From assembly GCF_937958655.1 (NCBI RefSeq), contig NZ_CALGNH010000032.1, forward strand, positions 62,001 through 126,000: 64,000 nucleotides of DNA, written 5' to 3'. Both the position numbers and the translations under genes were made by a program. Below are positions 7,616 through 62,426 of this stretch, piece after piece. The notes beneath the pieces are model-generated. The model saw only the letters and a program-made list of their open reading frames with translations. It was not told the origin of the DNA and searched no databases. Within the stretch, counting starts at the first letter, position 1. Every line of letters begins with the position of its first letter. The stretch comes from an uncultured Winogradskyella sp. (GTDB lineage Bacteria; Bacteroidota; Bacteroidia; Flavobacteriales; Flavobacteriaceae).

Positions 7616-9682
7616 TTAACTAATTTTTAAACCATTAGAAATCTGATCGTTATCTGGGTTTACAAATATCAAATGACCTAATTCATCTTCCGTCATCAAG
7701 ATCATACCTTTACTCTCAACTCCTCTTAATTTCCTCGGTGCTAAGTTTACTAAAACCATTACGCGTTTACCCACAACCTCTTCTGGCGTAAAACTCCCAG
7801 CAATTCCAGAAACAATGGTACGCGTATCTATACCAGTATCTACTTTTAAGACTAAGAGTTTTTTTGTTTTTGGCATTTTTTCTGCCTCTATAATAGTACC
7901 TACTCTAAGATCTAATTTTGTGAAATCATCAAAAGTAATCTCGTCTTTTTGAGGTTCTACTTGTTTTTTAGCTGCTTCATTGGCTTTTTTATTGGCAGCA
8001 AGTTTATGGAGTTGTTTTTCAATTTCAGAATCTTCTATTTTTAAAAACAATAAATCTGGTTTGCCTTTTTGAATAGAATGACCTGCTGGAAGCAAGATAG
8101 ACTTCGTAGAGACGCCTTCCCAAGTAGATTCTGAATCAAGTTCAGAATGACAAAGGATTGTTTTTAGTTTACTTGAAGTAAAGGGTAAAAAAGGTTCACT
8201 TAATACCGCTAAAGCAGACGCAATTTGCAAAGCAATAAACATTACTGTTTTAGTGCGATCCTCGTCTGTTTTTACTGTTTTCCATGGCTCTTCATCTGCT
8301 AAATACTTATTTCCTAATCTAGCCAAATTCATTAACTCTTGGCTAGCCTCTCTAAAACGGTAGCGCTCTATTGAACTAGAGATAACTGACGGATAAGCTT
8401 TTAAAGTAGTTAAAGTTTCTTCATCAATTGTTTTATAAGCGGAAGGACTTGGCACTACACCATCATAATATTTATTGGTTAATACCGCAACACGATTAAT
8501 AAAATTACCGAAAATTGCAACCAATTCATTATTATTTCTTGCCTGAAAATCTTTCCAAGTAAAATCATTATCCTTAGTTTCTGGGGCATTTGCCGTAAGT
8601 GCATAACGCAAAACGTCTTGTTGATCTGGAAAATCTTTTAAATAGTCTGGCAACCAAACTGCCCAATTCTTAGAAGTAGATAGTTTATTACCTTCTAAAT
8701 TTAAAAACTCGTTAGCAGGTACATTTTCTGGCAAAATATAAGAGCCTTCTGCTTTTAACATTGATGGAAAAATAATACAGTGAAATACAATATTATCTTT
8801 ACCTATAAAATGTACTAAGGTTGTATTATCATCTTTCCAATAATCTTCCCAGTTTTTGCCCTCACGTGCTGCCCACTCTTTAGTTGCTGAGATATAACCT
8901 ATAGGTGCGTCAAACCAAACATAAAGTACTTTTCCTTCACCGCCATCAACTGGTACAGGTATGCCCCAATCTAAATCTCTGGTTACAGCTCGTGGTCTTA
9001 ATCCATCATCTATCCAAGACTTAACCTGGCCATACACATTAGGTTTCCAGTCTTTTTTATGACCTTTTAGTATCCATTCTTTTAAAAATGCTTCGTGTTT
9101 ATTTAAAGGTAAAAACCAATGTTTTGTTTCTTTTACAGTTGGTACGTTACCGGTAATTGCAGACTTTGGATTTATTAAATCTGTAGCATTTAAACTAGAT
9201 CCACAATTTTCGCACTGATCTCCATAAGCATCTTCATTTCCGCATTTAGGACAAGTACCAGTAACAAAACGATCTGCCAAAAACTGATTAGCTTCGGCAT
9301 CGTAAAGCTGCTCAGAAACTTCTTCAACAAATTCATTTTTAGCATATAAAGTCTTAAAAAAGTCTGAAGCAGTATCGTGGTGTATCTTGGCTGAAGTACG
9401 CGAGTAATTATCAAAAGTTATCCCAAAGTCTTCAAAAGATTTTTTAATAATAGTATGGTATTTATCAACTATATCTTGTGGACTAACTCCTTCTTTTTTT
9501 GCCTTAATAGTAATAGGCACACCATGCTCATCACTCCCGCAGATAAATGCAACATCGTTACCTCTTAATCTTAAGTATCTAGAGTAAATATCTGCTGGCA
9601 CGTAAACACCTGCTAAATGCCCTATATGTATTGGGCCATTAGTGTATGGAAGTGCTGCAGTAATTGTATATCGCTTAGACAT
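7616..9682 (-). CDS. metG: Methionyl-tRNA synthetase with an in-frame repeat insertion
   Basis: A 688-aa class I synthetase that charges tRNA-Met. Motifs are HIGH (residues 19-22), a Zn knuckle CPKCG...CENCG near residue 145, KLSTS (333-337, the KMSKS loop), the anticodon-binding helices, and a C-terminal tRNA-binding OB domain ([11 protein letters not shown]). Residues 511-519 read CHSELDSES, the translation of a dispersed palindromic repeat (8124-8153). It sits in the linker between the anticodon domain and the C-terminal appendix, so the core is intact. The enzyme is presumably functional, since no second metG is seen here. Confidence 0.97.
8124..8153. repeat. Family A palindromic repeat inside metG
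   Basis: ATTCTGAA (8128-8135) and TTCAGAAT (8141-8148) form an 8-bp perfect stem with a 5-nt loop, followed by GACA. On the minus strand it reads TGTCATTCTGAAC..., the same layout as the intergenic copies at 18288, 19601, 41103 and 44101. It encodes CHSELDSES in frame. Confidence 0.85.
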
Positions 9683-16555: not shown

Positions 16556-17062
16556 TTAAACAGTTAATTCATTTTCTTCTTTAGCCTGTTTTGCCACTTT
16601 AAACACTTCACTTAAGACCATAAAAAATAATCCTAAACAGATGAGCATTACATTAGGTGTGAATCCGAAATCCAAACGAAACTCATCAAATAATACAAGT
16701 CTGGCACTAAAGAAAATTATAGCGCTCAATACACCAGTGATAGTTAAGAGTAAACCTATTCTATTATAATTAATGATAACCTCATCATGGAATGGTTTCA
16801 CTTTTTGGAAGTAGCGTAATGTTATTCTAAACAAATAAAAACAATATATCGCTATGCCAATCATTGCGATTATGGTCAAGGTAAAAAACTGAGCTAATGG
16901 CATAGAAGAATCTGCATTTAAATCATTATCAAATACAAAGGATATAGTTTCTGGATTCACAAATATGTAAACCCCAAAAAATAGTAATAATGCAACCGCA
17001 GGAACGCAAGTAACAATCCAAACAAAATCTACTAGACTTTTTAGAATAATTAATTTTCTCAT
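16556..17062 (-). CDS. DUF2975 membrane protein (first gene of the unit)
   Basis: A 168-aa protein with four hydrophobic segments and the family tail SEVFKVAKQAKEENELTV. It is similar in length and layout to its downstream neighbour, indicating tandem duplication followed by divergence. Its leader carries one of two operator-like dyads (17074-17090). The biological role is unknown. Confidence 0.8.
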   Translation of the reverse strand: MRKLIILKSLVDFVWIVTCVPAVALLLFFGVYIFVNPETISFVFDNDLNADSSMPLAQFFTLTIIAMIGIAIYCFYLFRITLRYFQKVKPFHDEVIINYNRIGLLLTITGVLSAIIFFSARLVLFDEFRLDFGFTPNVMLICLGLFFMVLSEVFKVAKQAKEENELTV

Positions 17063-17073
17063 TTTAATAAATA

Positions 17074-17121
17074 TTATCGTTTTACGATAACAAATATAAT
17101 AAAATTATTGAAAAACAATAA
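17074..17121 (-). promoter_or_regulatory. Promoter with two matching operator dyads (XRE-DUF2975 unit)
   Basis: Two inverted repeats have the same architecture, TTATYG-n5-CRATAA. The first is TTATCG-TTTTA-CGATAA (17074-17090); the second is TTATTG-AAAAA-CAATAA (17105-17121). Between them lies the minus-strand -7 box TATATTTG (17098-17091). The CAA of the second dyad supplies a TTG -33 element at 17-nt spacing. One dyad covers -33 and the other the start point, which is the expected layout for an autorepressor. Confidence 0.6.
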
Positions 17122-17144
17122 TTTTTTAGTCATACCACACTTCG

Positions 17145-17152
17145 TATCTTTG
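17145..17152 (+). promoter_or_regulatory. bioF -7 box, leaderless start
   Basis: TATCTTTG matches TAnnTTTG and ends 4 nt before the bioF ATG at 17157. The transcript should begin at or within a base or two of the start codon. No -33 element is evident; the neighbouring dyad at 17105 is 24 nt upstream. Confidence 0.5.
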
Positions 17153-17156
17153 ACCA

Positions 17157-18287
17157 ATGCTACCAAAAAAACTTCATAAAAAACTAGAAGAACGCAAAGC
17201 AAACAATGCGTTTAGGCGATTAGGTTCAAATTCTAATCTGATAGATTTTTCGTCTAACGATTACCTTGGTTTTTCAAAATCAGAAACAATTTTTAATAAA
17301 GCACATGACTATATAATAGATAATAACCTTAAGCAGAATGGTGCAACCGGTTCTCGTTTACTTTCGGGAAATCACAAACTTTACGACATTGCTGAAGCTA
17401 AAATCGCTAGAACTCACAATACCGAAGCAGCTCTTGTTTTTAACTCGGGCTACGATGCCAATTTGGGATTTTTCTCTTCAGTACCACAGCGCGGAGACAT
17501 TATTTTATATGACGAATTCTGCCACGCCTCCATTAGAGATGGTATAAGAATGAGTGATGCGAAAAGTTATAAATTCAGGCATAACGATTTAGAAGATTTA
17601 GACGAGATGCTGAAACGAGTCCAGTATGACAATGAAGACATCTTCATTGTCACCGAATCTGTCTTTTCTATGGATGGTGACTCACCAGATTTGAAAACAC
17701 TTATTGAGACAAGCAAAACATATAATGCACGCCTTATCATTGATGAAGCCCATGCGCTAGGTATTTTCGACGAGGGTTTAGTGCAACAATTAGGATTAGA
17801 AAATGATGCTTTTGCCAGGATCATAACATTCGGAAAAGCACTAGGTTGCCATGGTGCAGCAATACTAAGCTCAAAAGATTTAAAAGATTACCTCATCAAT
17901 TTTTCGCGTTCCTTTATTTACACCACAGCACTTCCACAGCATTCATTAGCCACAATACTTATGGCTTACAAAGCATTAGAAAAAACAAATCAAGCACAGC
18001 TTCTTAGTGAGAATATTCAATTCTTTATATCCGAGGTTAAAAGACTCAACCTTCAAAAGATATTCATTAATAGTACATCGGCTATTCATTGTTGTATTAT
18101 AACAGGAAATGACAACTTAAAAGCCATCGCGAAACAACTTCAGGATAAAGGTTTTGATGTAAAACCTATTTTATCACCAACCGTTCCAAAAGGAAAAGAA
18201 CGTTTACGATTTTGTTTACATAGCTATAATTCTAAAAAAGAAATCTCGGAAGTCTTAAGCTTGTTAGCTACCTTTGCTACGCAGTAG
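17157..18287 (+). CDS. bioF: 8-amino-7-oxononanoate synthase
   Basis: A 376-aa PLP enzyme of the alpha-oxoamine synthase family. It condenses pimeloyl thioester with alanine to 8-amino-7-oxononanoate, the first step of biotin ring assembly. The PLP lysine is Lys227 in ITFGKALGCHG; DEAHALGIF holds the Asp that contacts the PLP ring nitrogen. It is the first gene of the biotin operon and apparently leaderless. A family A repeat begins on the base after its stop codon. Confidence 0.93.
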   Translation: MLPKKLHKKLEERKANNAFRRLGSNSNLIDFSSNDYLGFSKSETIFNKAHDYIIDNNLKQNGATGSRLLSGNHKLYDIAEAKIARTHNTEAALVFNSGYDANLGFFSSVPQRGDIILYDEFCHASIRDGIRMSDAKSYKFRHNDLEDLDEMLKRVQYDNEDIFIVTESVFSMDGDSPDLKTLIETSKTYNARLIIDEAHALGIFDEGLVQQLGLENDAFARIITFGKALGCHGAAILSSKDLKDYLINFSRSFIYTTALPQHSLATILMAYKALEKTNQAQLLSENIQFFISEVKRLNLQKIFINSTSAIHCCIITGNDNLKAIAKQLQDKGFDVKPILSPTVPKGKERLRFCLHSYNSKKEISEVLSLLATFATQ

Positions 18288-18311
18288 TGCTGAACTTGTT
18301 TCAGCATCTCA
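18288..18311. repeat. Family A palindromic repeat after bioF
   Basis: TGCTGAA (18288-18294) and TTCAGCA (18300-18306), then TCTCA. It begins directly after the bioF TAG and ends 12 bp before the next ATG. It is in opposite orientation to the copy before bioA. Confidence 0.8.
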
Positions 18312-18323
18312 TTATATAAATTT

Positions 18324-18743
18324 ATGAGCGAAACATTTGTAACCATAGCCAGATACCAGTACTCTTCTGAAGCTCAAATCGTAAAAGGACGATTAGAAGC
18401 AGATGGTATTGAAGTGTTTCTAAAAGACAACATCACAATTGATACTGATCCTTTGGTAAGTAATGCTATAGGAGGCATTAAGCTGAAAGTACGTTCTGAA
18501 GATGAAAAAGAAGCTAAAGCCATTTTAAAATCTATTAAAGCTTATGCTGTTGACGATAACGGCAACCCTATTTTATGTCCTAATTGTGGAAAAAACGAAG
18601 TTGAACTTTATTCCACAATTGATAGTCTAAAAGCCTTTCTGTCATTTCTAATAGGTATCATAACCTTTACACTTCCTTTTCACACACGTTATAAATACAT
18701 TTGTGAAAATTGTAAAACTGAATTCCCTGTAAAGAAAGATTAA
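18324..18743 (+). CDS. DUF2007 zinc-ribbon protein
   Basis: A 139-aa protein. Residues 1-75 are a DUF2007 domain (VTIARYQYSSEAQIVKGRLEADGIEV), a PII/GlnB-like alpha-beta fold of unknown function. Residues 85-130 carry CPNC (Cys85, Cys88) and CENC (Cys127, Cys130), a zinc ribbon split by a hydrophobic hairpin (SFLIGIITFTLPF). It is embedded in the biotin operon between bioF and bioD, 33 bp before bioD. A link to biotin synthesis is not established. Confidence 0.75.
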   Translation: MSETFVTIARYQYSSEAQIVKGRLEADGIEVFLKDNITIDTDPLVSNAIGGIKLKVRSEDEKEAKAILKSIKAYAVDDNGNPILCPNCGKNEVELYSTIDSLKAFLSFLIGIITFTLPFHTRYKYICENCKTEFPVKKD

Positions 18744-18776
18744 TTTAAAATATTACCGTTCTAACGGCAAATACAT

Positions 18777-19388
18777 ATGAATACTTATTTTGTAACAGGA
18801 ATCTCAACAGATGTAGGTAAAACCATCGCCTCAGCCATTTTAGTTGAAGCCTTAGAAGCCGATTACTTTAAGCCCATACAAGCGGGTGATTTGGATAATA
18901 GCGATACGCATAAAGTGCAGCGTTTAGTTTCAAACTCTAAATCCGTTTTTCACGCTAATAGTTATGCTTTAGAAACACCTATGAGTCCTCATGGTGCAGC
19001 AGAAATCGATGGATTAACTATTGATATTAAAAAAATAAAACGTCCAAATACTACTAATAATATAGTTATTGAGGGAGCTGGCGGATTAATGGTCCCTTTA
19101 AATGATTCTGAAACTATTTTAGATTTAATTCATCCAAAGGATAGAGTCATTGTTGTTTCTCGTCATTACTTAGGCAGTATTAACCACACACTGTTAACGA
19201 TTAATACATTAAAAGAAAAGGGTTTTGATGTTGCTTTAATTTATAGTGGAGATGAATATAAATCAACCGAATCTATAATTAAAAAAATGACTGGAGTTAA
19301 AGTCATTGGCAGAATAAATGATGAGCTCTATTTTGATAGGAATGTAGTTAAGGAATATGCCGAAAGATTTAAAAAGCAACTATCTTAG
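18777..19388 (+). CDS. bioD: Dethiobiotin synthetase
   Basis: A 203-aa enzyme that closes the ureido ring of dethiobiotin from 7,8-diaminopelargonate, CO2 and ATP. The P-loop is GISTDVGKT (residues 8-16). Lys37-Pro-Ile-Gln-Ala-Gly follows, and EGAGGLMVPL is the second nucleotide or substrate loop. It is slightly shorter than E. coli BioD (225 aa), but the motifs are complete. It is followed by a 242-bp repeat-bearing gap before bioA. Confidence 0.93.
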   Translation: MNTYFVTGISTDVGKTIASAILVEALEADYFKPIQAGDLDNSDTHKVQRLVSNSKSVFHANSYALETPMSPHGAAEIDGLTIDIKKIKRPNTTNNIVIEGAGGLMVPLNDSETILDLIHPKDRVIVVSRHYLGSINHTLLTINTLKEKGFDVALIYSGDEYKSTESIIKKMTGVKVIGRINDELYFDRNVVKEYAERFKKQLS

Positions 19389-19630
19389 TCAAACTCAAAT
19401 CCCAAATCAATGCCTAGCATTGAACATTGAAATGCAGAATATAAAAATCAAATCGTTAAAAATTTTTGAAGCCTTAGAAGAAATTTAGATTTTATTTTTG
19501 GTTTTGCTACGCATGATACTTTCAATCAAAATATATTTTGATTTCAGTAGTGTATCAAGATAAAATGAACTTAAAGAAAAATTAAACCATTAAGCAATTA
19601 GATGCTGAAACAAGTTCAGCATGACAAAAT
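19389..19630. repeat. bioD-bioA gap with three palindromes (families C and A)
   Basis: The gap holds CAATGC-CTA-GCATTG (19408-19422). It also holds a family C element, TTTCAATCAAAATATATTTT and its continuation (about 19529-19556), which resembles the element nested at 44009-44045. Last is a family A repeat, TGCTGAA...TTCAGCA (19603-19621). The last element ends 5 bp before the bioA ATG at 19631, so the bioA translation-initiation region is made of repeat sequence. Confidence 0.7.
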
Positions 19631-20896
19631 ATGACACTGAAAGAAAGAGACAAAAAACACCTTTGGCATCCTTTAAAGCAGCATCAAACGCATCCTAATA
19701 GTTTGGCAATTGTAAAGGCCAAAGGCTGTCATTTATTTGATGAGGAAGGGAAATCATATATAGATGCGATTTCCTCTTGGTATACTTGTATGTTTGGGCA
19801 TTGCAACGATTACATTACATCTAGGGTTGCTGAGCAAATGAAAACGCTAGATCAAATTATGTTCAGTGACTTTACACACCAACCAGCCATTGAACTTTCT
19901 GAGGCACTTATTAAAATCCTTCCTGTTAACCAAAACCGAATTTTCTTTAATGACAATGGATCTACGGCTGTTGAAGCGGCTATTAAAATGGCCTTACAAT
20001 ACTATTTTAACAAAGGAGAAAAGCGTTCGTCATTTATTGCTTTTGAAAATGGTTTTCATGGAGACACTTTTGGAGCCATGTCAATGTCTAGCCTTTCTGT
20101 TTACAATGGGCCATTTGAGGACTTCTTAATGACTATTCATCGTATTCCTGTGCCTGATGGCACCAATACAGAAGCTATTTTAAATCAAATTCAAACGATA
20201 ATTGAGAGCGATTTAATTGCTGGTTTTATCTATGAACCTTTAGTCCAAGGTGCGGCAGGAATGAAAATTCATGATAGTGACGGTTTAAATGAAATTTTAA
20301 ATTGCTTTAAGTCTAATGGCATATTAACAATCGCTGATGAAGTAATGACAGGCTTTGGTAAGACAGGCAAATATTTTGCCTCAGACCATGTAAGTACTAA
20401 ACCAGACATCATCTGTTTAAGCAAGGCACTAACGGCAGGTCTTGTTCCAATGGCTATTACCTCCTGCACAGAAACAATTTACAAAGCCTTCTTAGGGGAA
20501 TCTATTGCCACTGGTTTTATGCATTGCCACACCTACTCTGCTAATCCAATTGCATGTGCTGCTGCAATCGCTGCAATTGAGTTACTTCAATCTGATGCCA
20601 TCCAAAATAACATTACGAGAATAGCAAATGCGCATAAAGCATTTGAATCAAAAATACAGAACCATCCAAAAGTTAAATCTACACGAAGCATTGGAGTGAT
20701 ATTAGCTATCGATCTAAATACCACTGCAGAACGTTATGGGGATTTGCGCGATAAACTGTTGGTATTCTTTATGAAAAACGGTGTGTTTCTACGTCCATTA
20801 GGTAACACCATTTACATACAACCACCTTATGTAGTTACTGAAGAAGAATTACAAAAAGTGTATTCAACTATTCAAAAAGCATTAGATATAGTTTAA
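19631..20896 (+). CDS. bioA: Adenosylmethionine-8-amino-7-oxononanoate aminotransferase
   Basis: A 421-aa class III PLP aminotransferase that uses SAM as amino donor to make 7,8-diaminopelargonate. The PLP lysine is Lys265 in ICLSKALTAG. DEVMTGFGKTG supplies the Asp that binds the PLP ring, and SSWYTCMFGH near the N-terminus is the BioA-type substrate region. The start at 19631 (MTLKERDKKHLWHPL) fits the family. The region before it is a repeat with no clear ribosome site. Confidence 0.94.
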   Translation: MTLKERDKKHLWHPLKQHQTHPNSLAIVKAKGCHLFDEEGKSYIDAISSWYTCMFGHCNDYITSRVAEQMKTLDQIMFSDFTHQPAIELSEALIKILPVNQNRIFFNDNGSTAVEAAIKMALQYYFNKGEKRSSFIAFENGFHGDTFGAMSMSSLSVYNGPFEDFLMTIHRIPVPDGTNTEAILNQIQTIIESDLIAGFIYEPLVQGAAGMKIHDSDGLNEILNCFKSNGILTIADEVMTGFGKTGKYFASDHVSTKPDIICLSKALTAGLVPMAITSCTETIYKAFLGESIATGFMHCHTYSANPIACAAAIAAIELLQSDAIQNNITRIANAHKAFESKIQNHPKVKSTRSIGVILAIDLNTTAERYGDLRDKLLVFFMKNGVFLRPLGNTIYIQPPYVVTEEELQKVYSTIQKALDIV

Positions 20897-20925
20897 GTAT
20901 TAAGCTTATTTTTGTTTAAATTAAA

Positions 20926-20998
20926 TGTCAGGTTAAGCACAGTCGACACCTATTTTAATTTCATCATAAAAATCCTTTCGACTGCACTCAAGGTGACA
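20926..20998. repeat. Family B inverted repeat between bioA and the condensing-enzyme gene
   Basis: Arms TGTCAGGTTAAGCACAGTCGA-like (about 20926-20946) and its complement (about 20978-20998) pair at 16 of 21 positions around a ~30-nt loop. It ends 18 bp before the ATG at 21017. An upstream reading frame runs through it, but the palindrome argues against its being coding. Confidence 0.65.
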
Positions 20999-21016
20999 CA
21001 AGTTTTATATAAAAAT

Positions 21017-22225
21017 ATGATTCAACCCATTTCTATAACTGCTATTTCATCGATTTCGGCCTTAGGATTTACACGAAGTGATATTTGGAACAACTACCTC
21101 TCAAAATCCCATTTTTTTTCAGAGCTAGACGACAATTTAGTCGCTCAACTAACAGCAGGTGCCAGACAAGAAATAGACAAACTTAGACATTCAAATAACA
21201 AGTATAAACAACTTGATGATTCCGTGCTATTTGGGATGTTCTGCGCAAGAACAGCTGTAAAAGAAGCTAATTGGACTTCGGAAGACAACTTTGGAATCAA
21301 TATAGGTTCTTCTAGAGGCGCAACGGGCTTATTTGAAAAATATTTTGAAAGCTTTTTAGACAAAAACAAGGCTGAAACCTTGAGTTCGCCTACAACAACT
21401 CTTGGAAATATTTCATCTTGGATTGCACACGATTTGCAAAGCAATGGTCCTGAAATTTCTCATTCTATAACCTGTTCTACAGCACTACACGCAATGCTTA
21501 ATGGCATTGCTTGGCTTAATTCTAACATGTGCGATAAATTCTTAGTTGGTGGTAGCGAAGCTCCGTTAACCCCTTTTACTATTGCGCAAATGAAAGCCCT
21601 TAAAATTTATTCTAGATTATCAAATAACGGTCACCTCGAGCATAGTCGAGAGGTCTCAGAAAGTCTCGACTACGCTCGACCTGACAGCCTCAAGTTTAGT
21701 CCATGCCAAGCGCTAAACCTTAATAAAACTGAGAACACTATGATTCTAGGTGAAGCTGCAGTCGTAGCTTGTTTAGAACAAGGCAAAAAAGATAATGCAA
21801 TTGCGGTTATTGAAGGTTATGGCTATGGTACAGAACTCCTAGAGCATAATGCTTCACTCTCGACGGATGCGGAATGTTTTCAAAAATCTATGCGAATGGC
21901 TTTAGGAGCTATTAAGCCTGAAGAAATTGATATTATAGTAACACATACACCAGGAACAATTAAGGGTGATTTGGCTGAATTTAATGCGATACAAACAATT
22001 TTTTGTAACGAAATCCCAGCTTTGACCACAAATAAACTAAAAGTTGGTCACAGTCTTGGAGCTTCTGGTCTGCTCAGTATAGAAATGGCCATACTTATGC
22101 TTAACCATCAAAAATTTATTGACATTCCGTACTTGGAGCAACCGCTTCCAACGAAGATTTCAAAAATTATGGTCAATGCCGTTGGATTTGGTGGTAATGC
22201 AGTTTCTATTGTACTTTCAAAATAG
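21017..22225 (+). CDS. FabF-like beta-ketoacyl synthase of the biotin operon, with an in-frame repeat insertion
   Basis: A 402-aa thiolase-fold condensing enzyme. The start at ATG 21017 (MIQPISITAISSISALGF) is preferred; the longer frame to 20912 is repeat sequence. The Cys-His-His set is complete: Cys153 (TCSTA), His310 (THTPGT) and His345 (GHSLGASG), with Lys near 340-342. Residues ~205-224 (GHLEHSREVSESLDYARPDS) are the translation of a family B inverted repeat, placed in a surface loop between KIYS and the FSPC segment. With no bioC or bioH here, the enzyme may elongate or build the pimeloyl precursor. Its substrate is unproven. Confidence 0.85.
   Translation: MIQPISITAISSISALGFTRSDIWNNYLSKSHFFSELDDNLVAQLTAGARQEIDKLRHSNNKYKQLDDSVLFGMFCARTAVKEANWTSEDNFGINIGSSRGATGLFEKYFESFLDKNKAETLSSPTTTLGNISSWIAHDLQSNGPEISHSITCSTALHAMLNGIAWLNSNMCDKFLVGGSEAPLTPFTIAQMKALKIYSRLSNNGHLEHSREVSESLDYARPDSLKFSPCQALNLNKTENTMILGEAAVVACLEQGKKDNAIAVIEGYGYGTELLEHNASLSTDAECFQKSMRMALGAIKPEEIDIIVTHTPGTIKGDLAEFNAIQTIFCNEIPALTTNKLKVGHSLGASGLLSIEMAILMLNHQKFIDIPYLEQPLPTKISKIMVNAVGFGGNAVSIVLSK
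21630..21685. repeat. Family B inverted repeat inside the condensing-enzyme gene
   Basis: Arms at 21630-21651 and 21664-21685 pair at 19 of 22 positions around a 12-nt loop. The cores are CTCGAGCATAGTCGAG and CTCGACTACGCTCGA. The ends are GTCA and TGAC, as in intergenic family B copies at 20926, 43946 and 62355. The element adds about 20 codons without shifting the frame. Confidence 0.85.
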
Positions 22226-22239
22226 AAAAATATTAGATT

Positions 22240-22722
22240 ATGATTTGTACTAATAAAAACTCATTTATGAAGATAGCAATCGTTGCTACTCTCATTATTT
22301 GTGGAGTTTTATTAGTTTTCAATCGTATCAATTATGGAATTTTGTTGGTTGCTTTAGGAAGCATAATCTTCTACTTTAGAAAAGGCATTGAACTAGATTT
22401 GCAAAAGAGAATTTATCGCAATTTTATGTCCTTATTTAATCATAGAATTGGAAAATGGAAAGACTTATCTGATATTGAGTACGTTTCTGTTTTTAGCACT
22501 AAAGAGTTTTCTTTAGATCCAAATTTAAGAGTAGACCATGAGCCTGGTGTTTCTGAAACGTTTGATGTTATTCATGTTAATCTGTTTTATGACACAAACA
22601 AAAAAATCACATCATTTAGGACTCAAGATAAAAAAGAAGCATTCAATGTAGCAGAAGAAATTGCGCAATTATTAAATGTTGATATTTTAGATGCTACAGA
22701 ACGAGAATCTAAATGGTTATAA
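22240..22722 (+). CDS. Membrane-anchored protein of unknown function (biotin operon)
   Basis: A 160-aa protein with two N-terminal hydrophobic segments (about residues 10-28 and 30-46), then a ~110-residue cytoplasmic domain (RIYRNFMSLFNHRIGKWKDLSDIEYVSVF...). The domain is reminiscent of membrane-anchored PH-like domains. Two starts are possible, ATG 22240 or ATG 22267. It lies 14 bp after the condensing enzyme and 30 bp before bioB, so it is co-transcribed with them. No named family was recognised and no role in biotin synthesis is known. Confidence 0.65.
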   Translation: MICTNKNSFMKIAIVATLIICGVLLVFNRINYGILLVALGSIIFYFRKGIELDLQKRIYRNFMSLFNHRIGKWKDLSDIEYVSVFSTKEFSLDPNLRVDHEPGVSETFDVIHVNLFYDTNKKITSFRTQDKKEAFNVAEEIAQLLNVDILDATERESKWL

Positions 22723-22752
22723 CTATTTTTGTTCAACAAGACATCAATCCAA

Positions 22753-23850
22753 ATGAGCGAAGTAAGACACAACTGGACCAAAGAAGAAATACTCGATATA
22801 TACCATAAACCTTTAATGGAGTTGCTTTACGAAGCAGCTACCATTCATAGAAAACATCATGATCCAAATACCGTTCAGGTATCAACATTGTTATCGATAA
22901 AGACTGGTGGCTGCCCAGAAGACTGTGGCTATTGCCCACAGGCAGCGCGTTATCATACAGATATTGAAGGTAACGATTTAATGAGTGTTCAGCAGGTTAA
23001 AGCGCAAGCCTTGCGTGCAAAATCTTCTGGTAGTTCTAGAGTTTGCATGGGTGCCGCTTGGAGAAATGTAAAAGATGGTCCTGAATTTAATCAGGTTTTA
23101 GAAATGGTGCGTACTATAAACAAACTCGATATGGAGGTTTGTTGTACCTTAGGAATGGTTACTGAAAATCAGGCCAAACGATTAGCAGAAGCCGGATTAT
23201 ATGCCTACAACCATAATTTAGATTCTTCGGAAGAATACTATAAAGAAGTTATTTCTACTCGAGGATTTGAAGACCGGCTTAAAACTATAGATAATGTTCG
23301 TAAAACAAATGTTACCGTATGTTCTGGTGGAATAATCGGTATGGGTGAAAAGGAAGAAGACAGAGCAGGAATGCTAGTTGCACTTACCACTTTAAATCCG
23401 CAACCAGAGTCTGTACCAATTAATGCATTAGTTGCTGTTGAAGGAACACCTTTAGAAGATCAAAAACCTGTTTCTATTTGGGATATGGTACGCATGGTAG
23501 CAACTACACGTATTGTATTACCAGAAACTCAAGTACGATTATCTGCTGGAAGAACCCAAATGACTAGAGAAGGCCAAGCCATGTGCTTTTTTGCTGGAGC
23601 AAATTCTATTTTTGCTGGTGACAAACTGTTAACAACTCCAAACCCAGATGTTAATGAGGACATGGAAATGTTTAAACTTCTAGGTTTAAATCCTCAAAAA
23701 CCATTCATCAAAAAGATGCAACCAGAAACTATTGAAGCTGAAGATTCGCAATACCAAACCTTGGGTGAAAAACCAAAATGGTCCCGACCTGAGCATAAAA
23801 TTGAGCGAAATGAAGAAGCTAAACAAAAGGCTAAGGAACTAACTAAATAA
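22753..23850 (+). CDS. bioB: Biotin synthase
   Basis: A 365-aa radical-SAM enzyme that inserts sulfur into dethiobiotin. The start is ATG 22753 (MSEVRHNWTKEE); an in-frame TTG at 22729 adds only eight unusual residues. The radical-SAM cluster is Cys54-x3-Cys58-x2-Cys61 (GGCPEDCGYCPQA), matching Cys53/57/60 of E. coli BioB. The second-cluster residues (YNHNLDSS, CSGGIIGMGE, RLSAGR) are present. The C-terminal ~35 residues form a charged extension (EARKEE-type). It is the last gene of the operon. Confidence 0.95.
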   Translation: MSEVRHNWTKEEILDIYHKPLMELLYEAATIHRKHHDPNTVQVSTLLSIKTGGCPEDCGYCPQAARYHTDIEGNDLMSVQQVKAQALRAKSSGSSRVCMGAAWRNVKDGPEFNQVLEMVRTINKLDMEVCCTLGMVTENQAKRLAEAGLYAYNHNLDSSEEYYKEVISTRGFEDRLKTIDNVRKTNVTVCSGGIIGMGEKEEDRAGMLVALTTLNPQPESVPINALVAVEGTPLEDQKPVSIWDMVRMVATTRIVLPETQVRLSAGRTQMTREGQAMCFFAGANSIFAGDKLLTTPNPDVNEDMEMFKLLGLNPQKPFIKKMQPETIEAEDSQYQTLGEKPKWSRPEHKIERNEEAKQKAKELTK

Positions 23851-24014
23851 TACTGAAAGACCAAGTATTTGGTGTAATAATTCAATTTTATTACTTCTTA
23901 AAATACTATCACTACGGAAAATATAGCATTGATTTCAAAGTTTTATTGACCTGTACACTACCTAATAGTGGCAACATTTAGCCTTTTTATAATAAGCTAT
24001 TCTCACAACGTTTT

Positions 24015-62354: not shown

Positions 62355-62426
62355 ACTGTCATCTCGAGCGTAGTCGAGAAACTTTTTGGTTTCAAAAGAC
62401 ATTTCGACTGCGCTCAATGTGACAGT
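62355..62426. repeat. Family B inverted repeat between bacilliredoxin and plsC-like genes
   Basis: Left arm ACTGTCATCTCGAGCGTAG (from 62355) pairs with the complement of GCGCTCAATGTGACAGT (to 62426) around a ~25-nt loop with TTTCAAAAG. It is followed by seven T residues, so on the plus strand it could end transcription of the bacilliredoxin gene. Ends 17 bp before the next ATG. Confidence 0.8.

What the first reader, a model, noticed from the sequence alone, without database searches (positions are those of the whole stretch)
21630..21685. A 56-bp inverted repeat inserted in frame in the biotin-operon condensing enzyme
The arms (22 nt, 19 paired) match intergenic family B elements, including the GTCA/TGAC ends. 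The insert adds about 20 residues (205-224) at a surface loop between KIYS and FSPC, where FabF-like enzymes are normally continuous. The length keeps the frame, and the mRNA would fold strongly in mid-gene. Two in-frame captures of different repeat families within 64 kb suggests an active or recently active spread.
Basis: partly seen in the sequence, partly recalled or inferred. Interest (0 to 1): 0.7.

Follow-up and report, generated by a model that had tools for sequence, protein, structure and literature searches.

The report
Repeat DNA repeatedly captured in enzyme loop
A short mobile palindrome sits in frame inside an enzyme gene of the biotin cluster of a marine bacterium, and related bacteria have apparently taken up similar repeats many separate times in the same loop of the same enzyme, a natural experiment in how selfish DNA adds pieces to proteins.

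Summary
The palindrome at 21630-21685 is real: an inverted pair of short REP-like units (GTCA...GAGC..GTCGA) whose arm pattern occurs at 70 places in this Winogradskyella-type genome (0 in the control). It lies in an intact FabF-like gene between bioA and bioB. Ten of the 15 genus genomes with the gene have a plain loop, 23 residues shorter. The new result is recurrence. The same loop carries REP units in 18 of 134 distinct homologues by a strict pattern (15 numbered genera), 23 with five read by eye, from several subfamilies and in three frames. The 18 labels need 18 changes on the gene tree, 7 forced by well-supported branches. Hits: 22 in the loop, 2 elsewhere in coding parts. Genomes with inserts hold more REPs (median 27 against 3). 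LeuRS, BioF and MetRS carry such units too. Best reading: heavy REP influx filtered by selection to tolerant loops, as with rickettsial palindromic elements. Unexplained: strong sense-strand bias (18 of 18 strict loops, though not all by-eye cases). The mobilising enzyme is not identified.

The parts
21017..22225 (+). FabF-like beta-ketoacyl synthase gene, 402 aa, between bioA and bioB
   Evidence: ketoacyl-synt N and C domains; best NCBIfam model fabF 116 bits, below its cut-off 493.75; homologues align from the same ATG
21630..21685 (+). 56-nt inverted pair of two REP-like units, in frame, encoding about residues 205-223
21630..21649 (+). leading REP-like unit core, sense orientation (GTCACCTCGAGCATAGTCGA)
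   Evidence: 0 mismatches to the unit pattern
21666..21685 (-). second REP-like unit core, antisense (GTCAGGTCGAGCGTAGTCGA)
   Evidence: 0 mismatches to the unit pattern
20927..20997 (+). a second, slightly decayed REP pair just upstream of the ATG of the same gene (inside the longer TTG-started frame)
   Evidence: 1 mismatch each; upstream of the homology start
62358..62423 (+). intergenic pair of the same kind of repeat
   Evidence: 0 mismatches each
17610..17630 (-). REP-like unit of the GTTTCAG subfamily in frame in bioF (17157-18287)
   Evidence: 1 mismatch; the BioF loop is variable and reads REP-like in other species (protein level)
8131..8151 (-). REP-like unit of the GTTTCAG subfamily in frame in methionyl-tRNA synthetase (7616-9682, minus strand), translated CHSELDSES
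   Evidence: 1 mismatch; no relatives compared
19605..19625 (-). intergenic GTTTCAG-subfamily unit between bioD and bioA
   Evidence: 0 mismatches

Best explanation
A pair of short, palindromic repeats (REP-like, GTCA-tagged, common in Flavobacteriaceae) inserted into the biotin-cluster ketoacyl synthase gene at a loop that tolerates extra residues; it is translated as part of the enzyme and is probably near-neutral. REP units move or are copied often in this family. In most of a conserved gene selection removes them, but in a few permissive loops copies that leave the frame open survive. So the same loop of the same enzyme has been filled independently, by different repeat subfamilies and in different frames, in many genera. 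Shown: repeat identity, absence in close relatives, recurrence at one loop, scatter on the tree, link with REP load (kinship not corrected). Inferred: translation of the insert, surface position, neutrality, transposition as the source. Not known: which enzyme moves the units and why the units are nearly always in sense orientation.
For: Ten genus genomes with a plain loop. Unit pattern at <=2 mismatches: 22 hits in the loop of 18 of 134 distinct homologues; 5 outside, of which 3 lie before the homology start and 2 (L222, L080) in coding parts; 1 hit in reversed sequences. The 18 labels need 18 changes on a tree built without the loop, 7 forced by well-supported branches; shuffled mean 17.1, so not clustered. 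With five by-eye cases: 23 labels, 20 changes, 8 forced. Three reading frames: 13, 3 and 2. The REP pattern occurs in 231 of 397 family genomes with at most 1 per strand in the control. REP count median 27 in 19 insert genomes (17 strict, 2 by eye; the insert itself counts in) against 3 in 59 genomes read without insert, Mann-Whitney p 4.6e-6. 16 genes of this genome hold 19 of the 70 units with at least 50 open codons on both sides, among them LeuRS, a Glu/Gln-tRNA synthetase, an RNase R-like, an Mfd-like and a HisA/HisF-like gene. The LeuRS hairpin has strict hits in 4 of 30 loci, own included; the BioF loop reads REP-like in 10 of 29 loci (protein level). Cys153, His310 and His345 are invariant in 32 sequences (catalytic roles recalled).
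Against: The sense orientation in 18 of 18 strict loops is not expected from stop codons alone (p about 1.4e-5), and neutral tolerance does not predict it. No transposase could be tied to the units: the only Pfam Y1 match in this genome is fused to HemF and has no unit in its locus, and six of the 15 genomes searched, including REP-rich ones such as G275 and G208, carry REPs in number but gave no match. No target duplication or exact boundaries could be defined, because flanking loop sequence also changed. The G000 and G327 pairs are both 56 nt and 44 of 56 identical, so shared ancestry or transfer of that one is not excluded. About half of the long loops (22 of 43 with motif length 45 or more) are not recognisably REP-derived. 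No expression or structural data.
Confidence: 0.82

Rival explanations
1. One ancient insertion in an ancestor of these Flavobacteriaceae, later lost in most lineages and diverged or overwritten in the rest.
For: Same loop, and same strand in the 18 strict cases; L160, L178 and L182 share similar residues before the insert; G000 and G327 carry pairs of equal length. Parsimony counts gains and losses alike.
Against: Different subfamilies, three frames and near-consensus copies in distant genera; 18 labels need 18 changes, not clustered; the nearest relative G043 of the own genome lacks it.
Confidence: 0.07
2. Directed insertion: a DNA or RNA feature attracts the element, or a strand-specific single-stranded DNA transposase inserts it in one orientation relative to transcription or replication.
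For: Sense unit in 18 of 18 strict loops, and in 16 of 17 leading or lone units in genes of this genome (this gene included), beyond the stop filter.
Against: The insertion point within the loop varies by codons and frame, and by eye the flanks share no motif. The by-eye loop L175 begins with an antisense-like unit and L195 has an antisense-like piece before its strict unit. BioF and LeuRS loops carry antisense units too; other genes are hit.
Confidence: 0.12
3. Functional recruitment: longer loops here are selected because they change acyl-carrier-protein docking or partner choice.
For: By alignment to a solved FabF (4jga) and recalled E. coli FabF numbering, the loop begins a few residues after the counterpart of FabF Arg206, which contacts AcpP (one passage of PMC7138838).
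Against: Insert sequences differ in length, frame and composition; most homologues read have no REP insert; similar inserts in unrelated enzymes.
Confidence: 0.08
4. Assembly error or decaying pseudogene.
For: Draft genome of 93 contigs.
Against: The gene lies 83-84 kb into a 149.8-kb contig, frame open, conserved residues kept, recurrence in other genomes including single-contig ones such as G404 and G461.
Confidence: 0.02

Closest known systems
Rickettsial palindromic elements (RPE) in protein-coding genes
   Same: Short palindromic repeats in frame in housekeeping genes; one such enzyme, guanylate kinase, was still active (passages of PMC2229807).
   Different: RPEs are given as 105-146 bp and rickettsial; here units are about 27 nt, alone or paired, in Flavobacteriaceae, with the same loop hit in many genera.
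GTAG- and CGTC-tagged REPs, intragenic cases (PMC3733652: section 15 read; passages)
   Same: 20-40 bp tagged palindromes, single or inverted pairs, some inside ORFs; the paper already lists CGTC repeats from Bacteroidetes and reports two Xanthomonas recB genes hit at about the same site.
   Different: The tag here is (T)GTCA, neither GTAG nor CGTC; recurrence spans 15 numbered genera rather than two species; no RAYT link found.
REPINs / RAYT-mobilised REP doublets (PMC3116915 and PMC2817692, seen only in a search listing)
   Same: Two units in inverted orientation forming a hairpin.
   Different: No Y1 transposase gene flanked by these units among the loci scanned.
TnpA-REP-like HUH subclass 2.6 of Bacteroidetes (PMC6006769: section 25 read; passages)
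   Same: Bacteroidetes HUH genes with atypical flanking structures, copies of which lie elsewhere in the genome; a possible kind of mobiliser.
   Different: Not compared in sequence with the elements here.
MITEs fused in frame to genes, e.g. Correia and ERIC (passages of PMC2229807)
   Same: Small non-autonomous repeats found in frame in genes.
   Different: No terminal inverted repeat with target duplication shown here.

Membership tests
GTAG/CGTC REP superfamilies | GTAG or CGTC tetranucleotide tag at one end | tested here: not met
   Units end in GTCA, in the copies I looked at mostly preceded by T on that strand; hence 'REP-like', not filed as a member
REP-like elements in general | 20-40 bp imperfect palindrome in many dispersed copies | tested here: met
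   70 places in this genome, control 0; 231 of 397 family genomes
REPIN | two units in inverted orientation at short spacing | tested here: met
   21630-21649 + and 21666-21685 -; other pairs
REPIN / RAYT system | associated Y1 (HUH) transposase gene flanked by the units | tested here: inconclusive
   7 of 15 genomes have a PF01797 match; of 9 such loci scanned only L230 has a unit, about 1.2 kb from the matched domain; one further locus, L232, was not scanned
Rickettsial palindromic elements | in-frame presence in otherwise conserved protein genes | tested here: met
   16 genes in this genome; works like an RPE, no claim of common descent
Rickettsial palindromic elements | sequence relation to RPE families | not tested
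   no RPE sequence was compared
MITE | terminal inverted repeats with target-site duplication | tested here: inconclusive
   inverted arms present; comparison with the plain loop of G043 gives no clean junction
FabF (beta-ketoacyl-ACP synthase II) | NCBIfam fabF equivalog cut-off | tested here: not met
   116 bits against 493.75; the insert-free orthologue 129.8: FabF-like, not FabF
ketoacyl synthase (Cys-His-His) | invariant catalytic Cys and two His | tested here: met
   C153, H310, H345 invariant in 32 sequences; their roles are recalled

The most novel reading that the evidence does not exclude
In Flavobacteriaceae, REP-like units are a steady, strand-biased source of new protein segments: a mobiliser acting on single-stranded DNA inserts them in one orientation relative to the transcribed gene, and a small set of permissive loops (ketoacyl synthase, LeuRS editing hairpin, BioF and others) is refilled independently in genus after genus. 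The Y1-transposase-HemF fusion protein found here is a candidate mobiliser.
Probability: 0.18. Interest if true: 0.8.

Novelty: new variant of a known kind. Interest (0 to 1): 0.6.

Why it matters
In-frame palindromes in genes have been known since the Rickettsia work (Ogata 2000; recalled, and cited in passages). One loop with up to 18 apparently independent fills, sister species with an empty loop, and the same pattern in other enzymes gives natural replicates. It makes testable whether selfish repeats contribute to protein evolution, how fast inserts decay, and whether insertion is strand-specific. It also suggests to annotators that loops with CHSE......AQHD or ...SAVE... strings may be repeat-derived. 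My literature searches (titles and abstract starts of the listed papers) showed no paper on in-frame REP capture in Flavobacteriaceae, though PMC3733652 reports CGTC repeats in Bacteroidetes (passage) and its supplementary gene lists were not seen; subscription journals are mostly not held.

Tried and rejected
Uniqueness of this loop: rejected; LeuRS and BioF (protein level only) show recurrence as well. Y1 transposase as driver of REP load: of 63 genomes with a Y1 match 23 have 10 or more REPs, against 111 of 397 overall, p 0.125, not supported; the fused subset 11 of 17, p 0.0014, but this was not corrected for kinship and was chosen after seeing the data. Pseudogene: rejected (open frame, conserved residues kept). 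Known RNA family: no Rfam match at the gathering threshold in 17000-24000. Plasmid-borne copy: no match to the 86-base query. Structure of the insert: not possible, the tool took no jobs. Counting caveats: the 40 loci were chosen because their matches were about 7 or more residues longer than the query; shorter listed rows and the unprinted tail were not read, so family counts are lower bounds (16 numbered genomes besides the own one, of 210 with a match, including the by-eye G273). Five of the 23 inserts (L175, L084, L051, L043, L093) were called by eye. Two homologues (L194, L086) are not among the 134 because the loop motif was not found; L194's loop was printed and shows no REP. The non-loop length in the enrichment test was rounded to 150 kb. 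REP counts and genome lists were typed by hand. In one search the genome of L084 was not held, so not searched. The orientation counts were made by hand; 18 of 18 is the best-matching unit per loop, not always the first piece (L195).

Full report
What is there. The window lies in a 3.03-Mb draft genome of 93 contigs; the nearest named relatives by this gene are Winogradskyella. A gene of 402 codons from ATG 21017 encodes a FabF-like ketoacyl synthase, with bioF and bioD upstream, bioA just before it and bioB after it. At 21630-21685 sits an inverted repeat with 22-nt arms, 19 positions paired; RNA of 21620-21695 folds at -28.9 kcal/mol with no shuffle as stable. It consists of two 20-nt units, GTCA-N3-YGAGC-NNN-GTCGA, in opposite orientation.

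The repeat is dispersed. The arm pattern occurs at 70 places in this genome at up to 3 mismatches, with 0 in the reversed control. I fetched them with flanks (loci) and found 70 distinct units. Nineteen units, in 16 genes, lie in open frames with at least 50 codons on each side. Pfam names 15 of the 16: an Mfd-like helicase, 2-oxoacid dehydrogenase E2, a chorismate-binding enzyme, A2M, LeuRS, an E1 dehydrogenase, GSCFA, methylmalonyl-CoA mutase, mevalonate-diphosphate decarboxylase, a HemN-like protein, a HisA/HisF-like protein, a Glu/Gln-tRNA synthetase, an M23 peptidase, an RNase R-like protein and the ketoacyl synthase; L137 has no match. The other 51 units lie outside such frames. Many are paired, mostly 66-72 nt end to end, with exceptions at 54 and 82 (coordinates); the pair in this gene is 56.

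The insert is absent from close relatives. Of 68 genomes of the genus, 15 have the gene at E <= 1e-20. Ten of them have the plain loop, a 38-residue motif against 61 here; G063 carries another REP, G017 a REP-like insert by eye, and G054 and G060 longer loops of unclear origin. The closest, G043, has 83.7% DNA identity and lacks the insert. The total difference is 69 nt, of which 56 are the repeat, so the element's own length does not by itself keep the frame.

The same loop was filled elsewhere. A search of 397 Flavobacteriaceae genomes found the gene in 210 at E <= 1e-60. I read the loop in 30 loci given by that search, 40 fetched because their match was unusually long, 5 genomes with split matches, the genus and the 52 loci. 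The loops contain DNA such as TGTCATGCTGAGCCTGTCGAAGCATCT in W. ursingii (L090), TGTCATTCTGAGCTTGTCGAAGAATCT in G292, GTCAGGTCGAGCGCAGTCGAGACCTT in G443 and GGTCACACTGAGCGCAGTCGAAGTG in L041. By a strict pattern (two mismatches at most), 22 hits fall in the loop of 18 of 134 distinct genes. Outside there are 5: three upstream of the homology start and two in coding parts (L222, L080); reversed sequences give 1. Five more loops look like decayed REPs by eye, 23 in all. Of the 43 loops with motif length 45 or more, I count 21 as REP-derived; 22 are not recognisably so.

Independent gains. On a tree built without the loop, the 18 strict labels need 18 changes, as many as scattered labels would (shuffled mean 17.1), and 7 are forced by well-supported branches. 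With 23 labels it is 20 and 8. The tree is a quick one with many weak forks. Subfamilies differ, and frames are split 13, 3 and 2. One case, G000 and G327, could share ancestry: both are 56 nt, 44 identical. Parsimony counts gains and losses alike, so the frame and subfamily differences carry the argument for separate gains.

Supply of repeats. The REP pattern GTCANNNYGARCN{2,3}GTCGA occurs in 231 of 397 family genomes, up to 88 copies, with 0-1 per strand in the control. In 19 insert-bearing genomes the median count is 27; in 59 genomes whose loop I read without a REP it is 3 (p 4.6e-6; without the own genus, 16 genomes, p 3.2e-5). The insert itself is among the counted copies, some insert genomes have few (G306 3, G180 6), and kinship was not corrected for. 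G043, the empty sister, has 1 copy.

Not only this gene. The LeuRS editing-domain hairpin was searched in 80 genomes (78 with a match) and read in the 30 loci given: unit-pattern hits in 4 of 30, the own genome included, and several more loops read like REP translations. The BioF loop carries the window's own unit and reads REP-like, at protein level only, in 10 of 29 loci (three partial matches not read). MetRS in this window also has a unit (no relatives compared). So the ketoacyl synthase loop is one of a set of permissive sites. That favours 'influx plus selection filter' over a gene-specific mechanism.

Unexplained orientation. In all 18 strict loops the best-matching unit reads GTCA-first on the coding strand. 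In the 16 genes of this genome, this one included, 16 of 17 leading or lone units do; L116 is the exception (counted by hand). Stop codons allow nearly equal shares (0.52 sense for the 70 units of this genome), giving p 2.6e-4 for the genome and, with ten consensus strings, 1.4e-5 for the loop. Protein-level preference for hydrophilic sense frames, or strand-specific insertion, could each explain the bias.

Mobiliser. The only Pfam Y1-transposase match in this genome (23.2 bits by genome search; 20.8 bits against the cut-off 23) is the N-terminal part of a 506-aa protein whose C-terminal part is coproporphyrinogen oxidase HemF (441.8 bits). The same fusion is read in G326 (L228), G443 (L233) and G017 (L230). 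Open frames of 490-553 aa over the match in 17 of 397 family genomes suggest it in the others, which were not read. No REP unit lies in L144. It is a lead only. Of the 15 genomes searched, 8 gave no Y1 match, among them REP-rich G275, G208, G462, G267 and G327.

Loop position. By alignment with solved FabF 4jga and recalled numbering of E. coli FabF, the loop starts a few residues after the counterpart of Arg206, which contacts AcpP (one passage of PMC7138838).

Known background. RPEs in Rickettsia genes and intragenic REPs are established (passages of PMC2229807, PMC2996958, and PMC2635572; section 15 of PMC3733652). PMC3733652 also reports two Xanthomonas recB genes hit at about the same site and CGTC repeats in Bacteroidetes. 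The present case works like those, has a different tag, and shows recurrence over more genera than that report describes for recB.

Noticed in passing
L144 56-1576 (own genome, contig C8 start); L228, L230, L233: A protein fusing a Y1 (HUH) transposase-like domain to coproporphyrinogen oxidase HemF; by open-frame length it may occur in 17 of 397 family genomes. That set is richer in REP-rich genomes (11 of 17; post hoc, kinship not corrected).
   Followed up: partly
L144, HemF part, residues YPSTSLRPGEPRP: HemF of this genome has an extra REP-like stretch (CCTTCGACTTCGCTCAGG) absent from L228, L230 and L233.
   Followed up: no
L234-L237 and G069, G090, G103, G117: The LeuRS editing-domain hairpin carries REP units in four genera read; four other genomes have about 345-612 nt between the two halves of the match there, not read.
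   Followed up: partly
window 17590-17650 (bioF) and L037, L039, L044, L045, L047, L072, L078: The BioF loop before IYIVTESVFSMDG is variable and reads REP-like in several species.
   Followed up: partly
L027, L033, L132: Intergenic REP pairs appear enclosed in a longer element with matching ends near ...TTTTTAGACAGCCTCTT, possibly a MITE (seen by eye).
   Followed up: no
L218 (G147) and L219 (G355): The same ketoacyl synthase loop holds still longer inserts (motif length 94 and 76 against 38) of unknown origin.
   Followed up: no
L041: A MAG labelled Algicola (shown as Pseudomonadota) groups with Psychroserpens in the ketoacyl synthase tree; the label may be wrong.
   Followed up: no
L083, L087: Undibacterium (Oxalobacteraceae) carries a relative of this ketoacyl synthase, 48-49% identical, falling among flavobacterial rows in the tree: possible gene transfer.
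   Followed up: no
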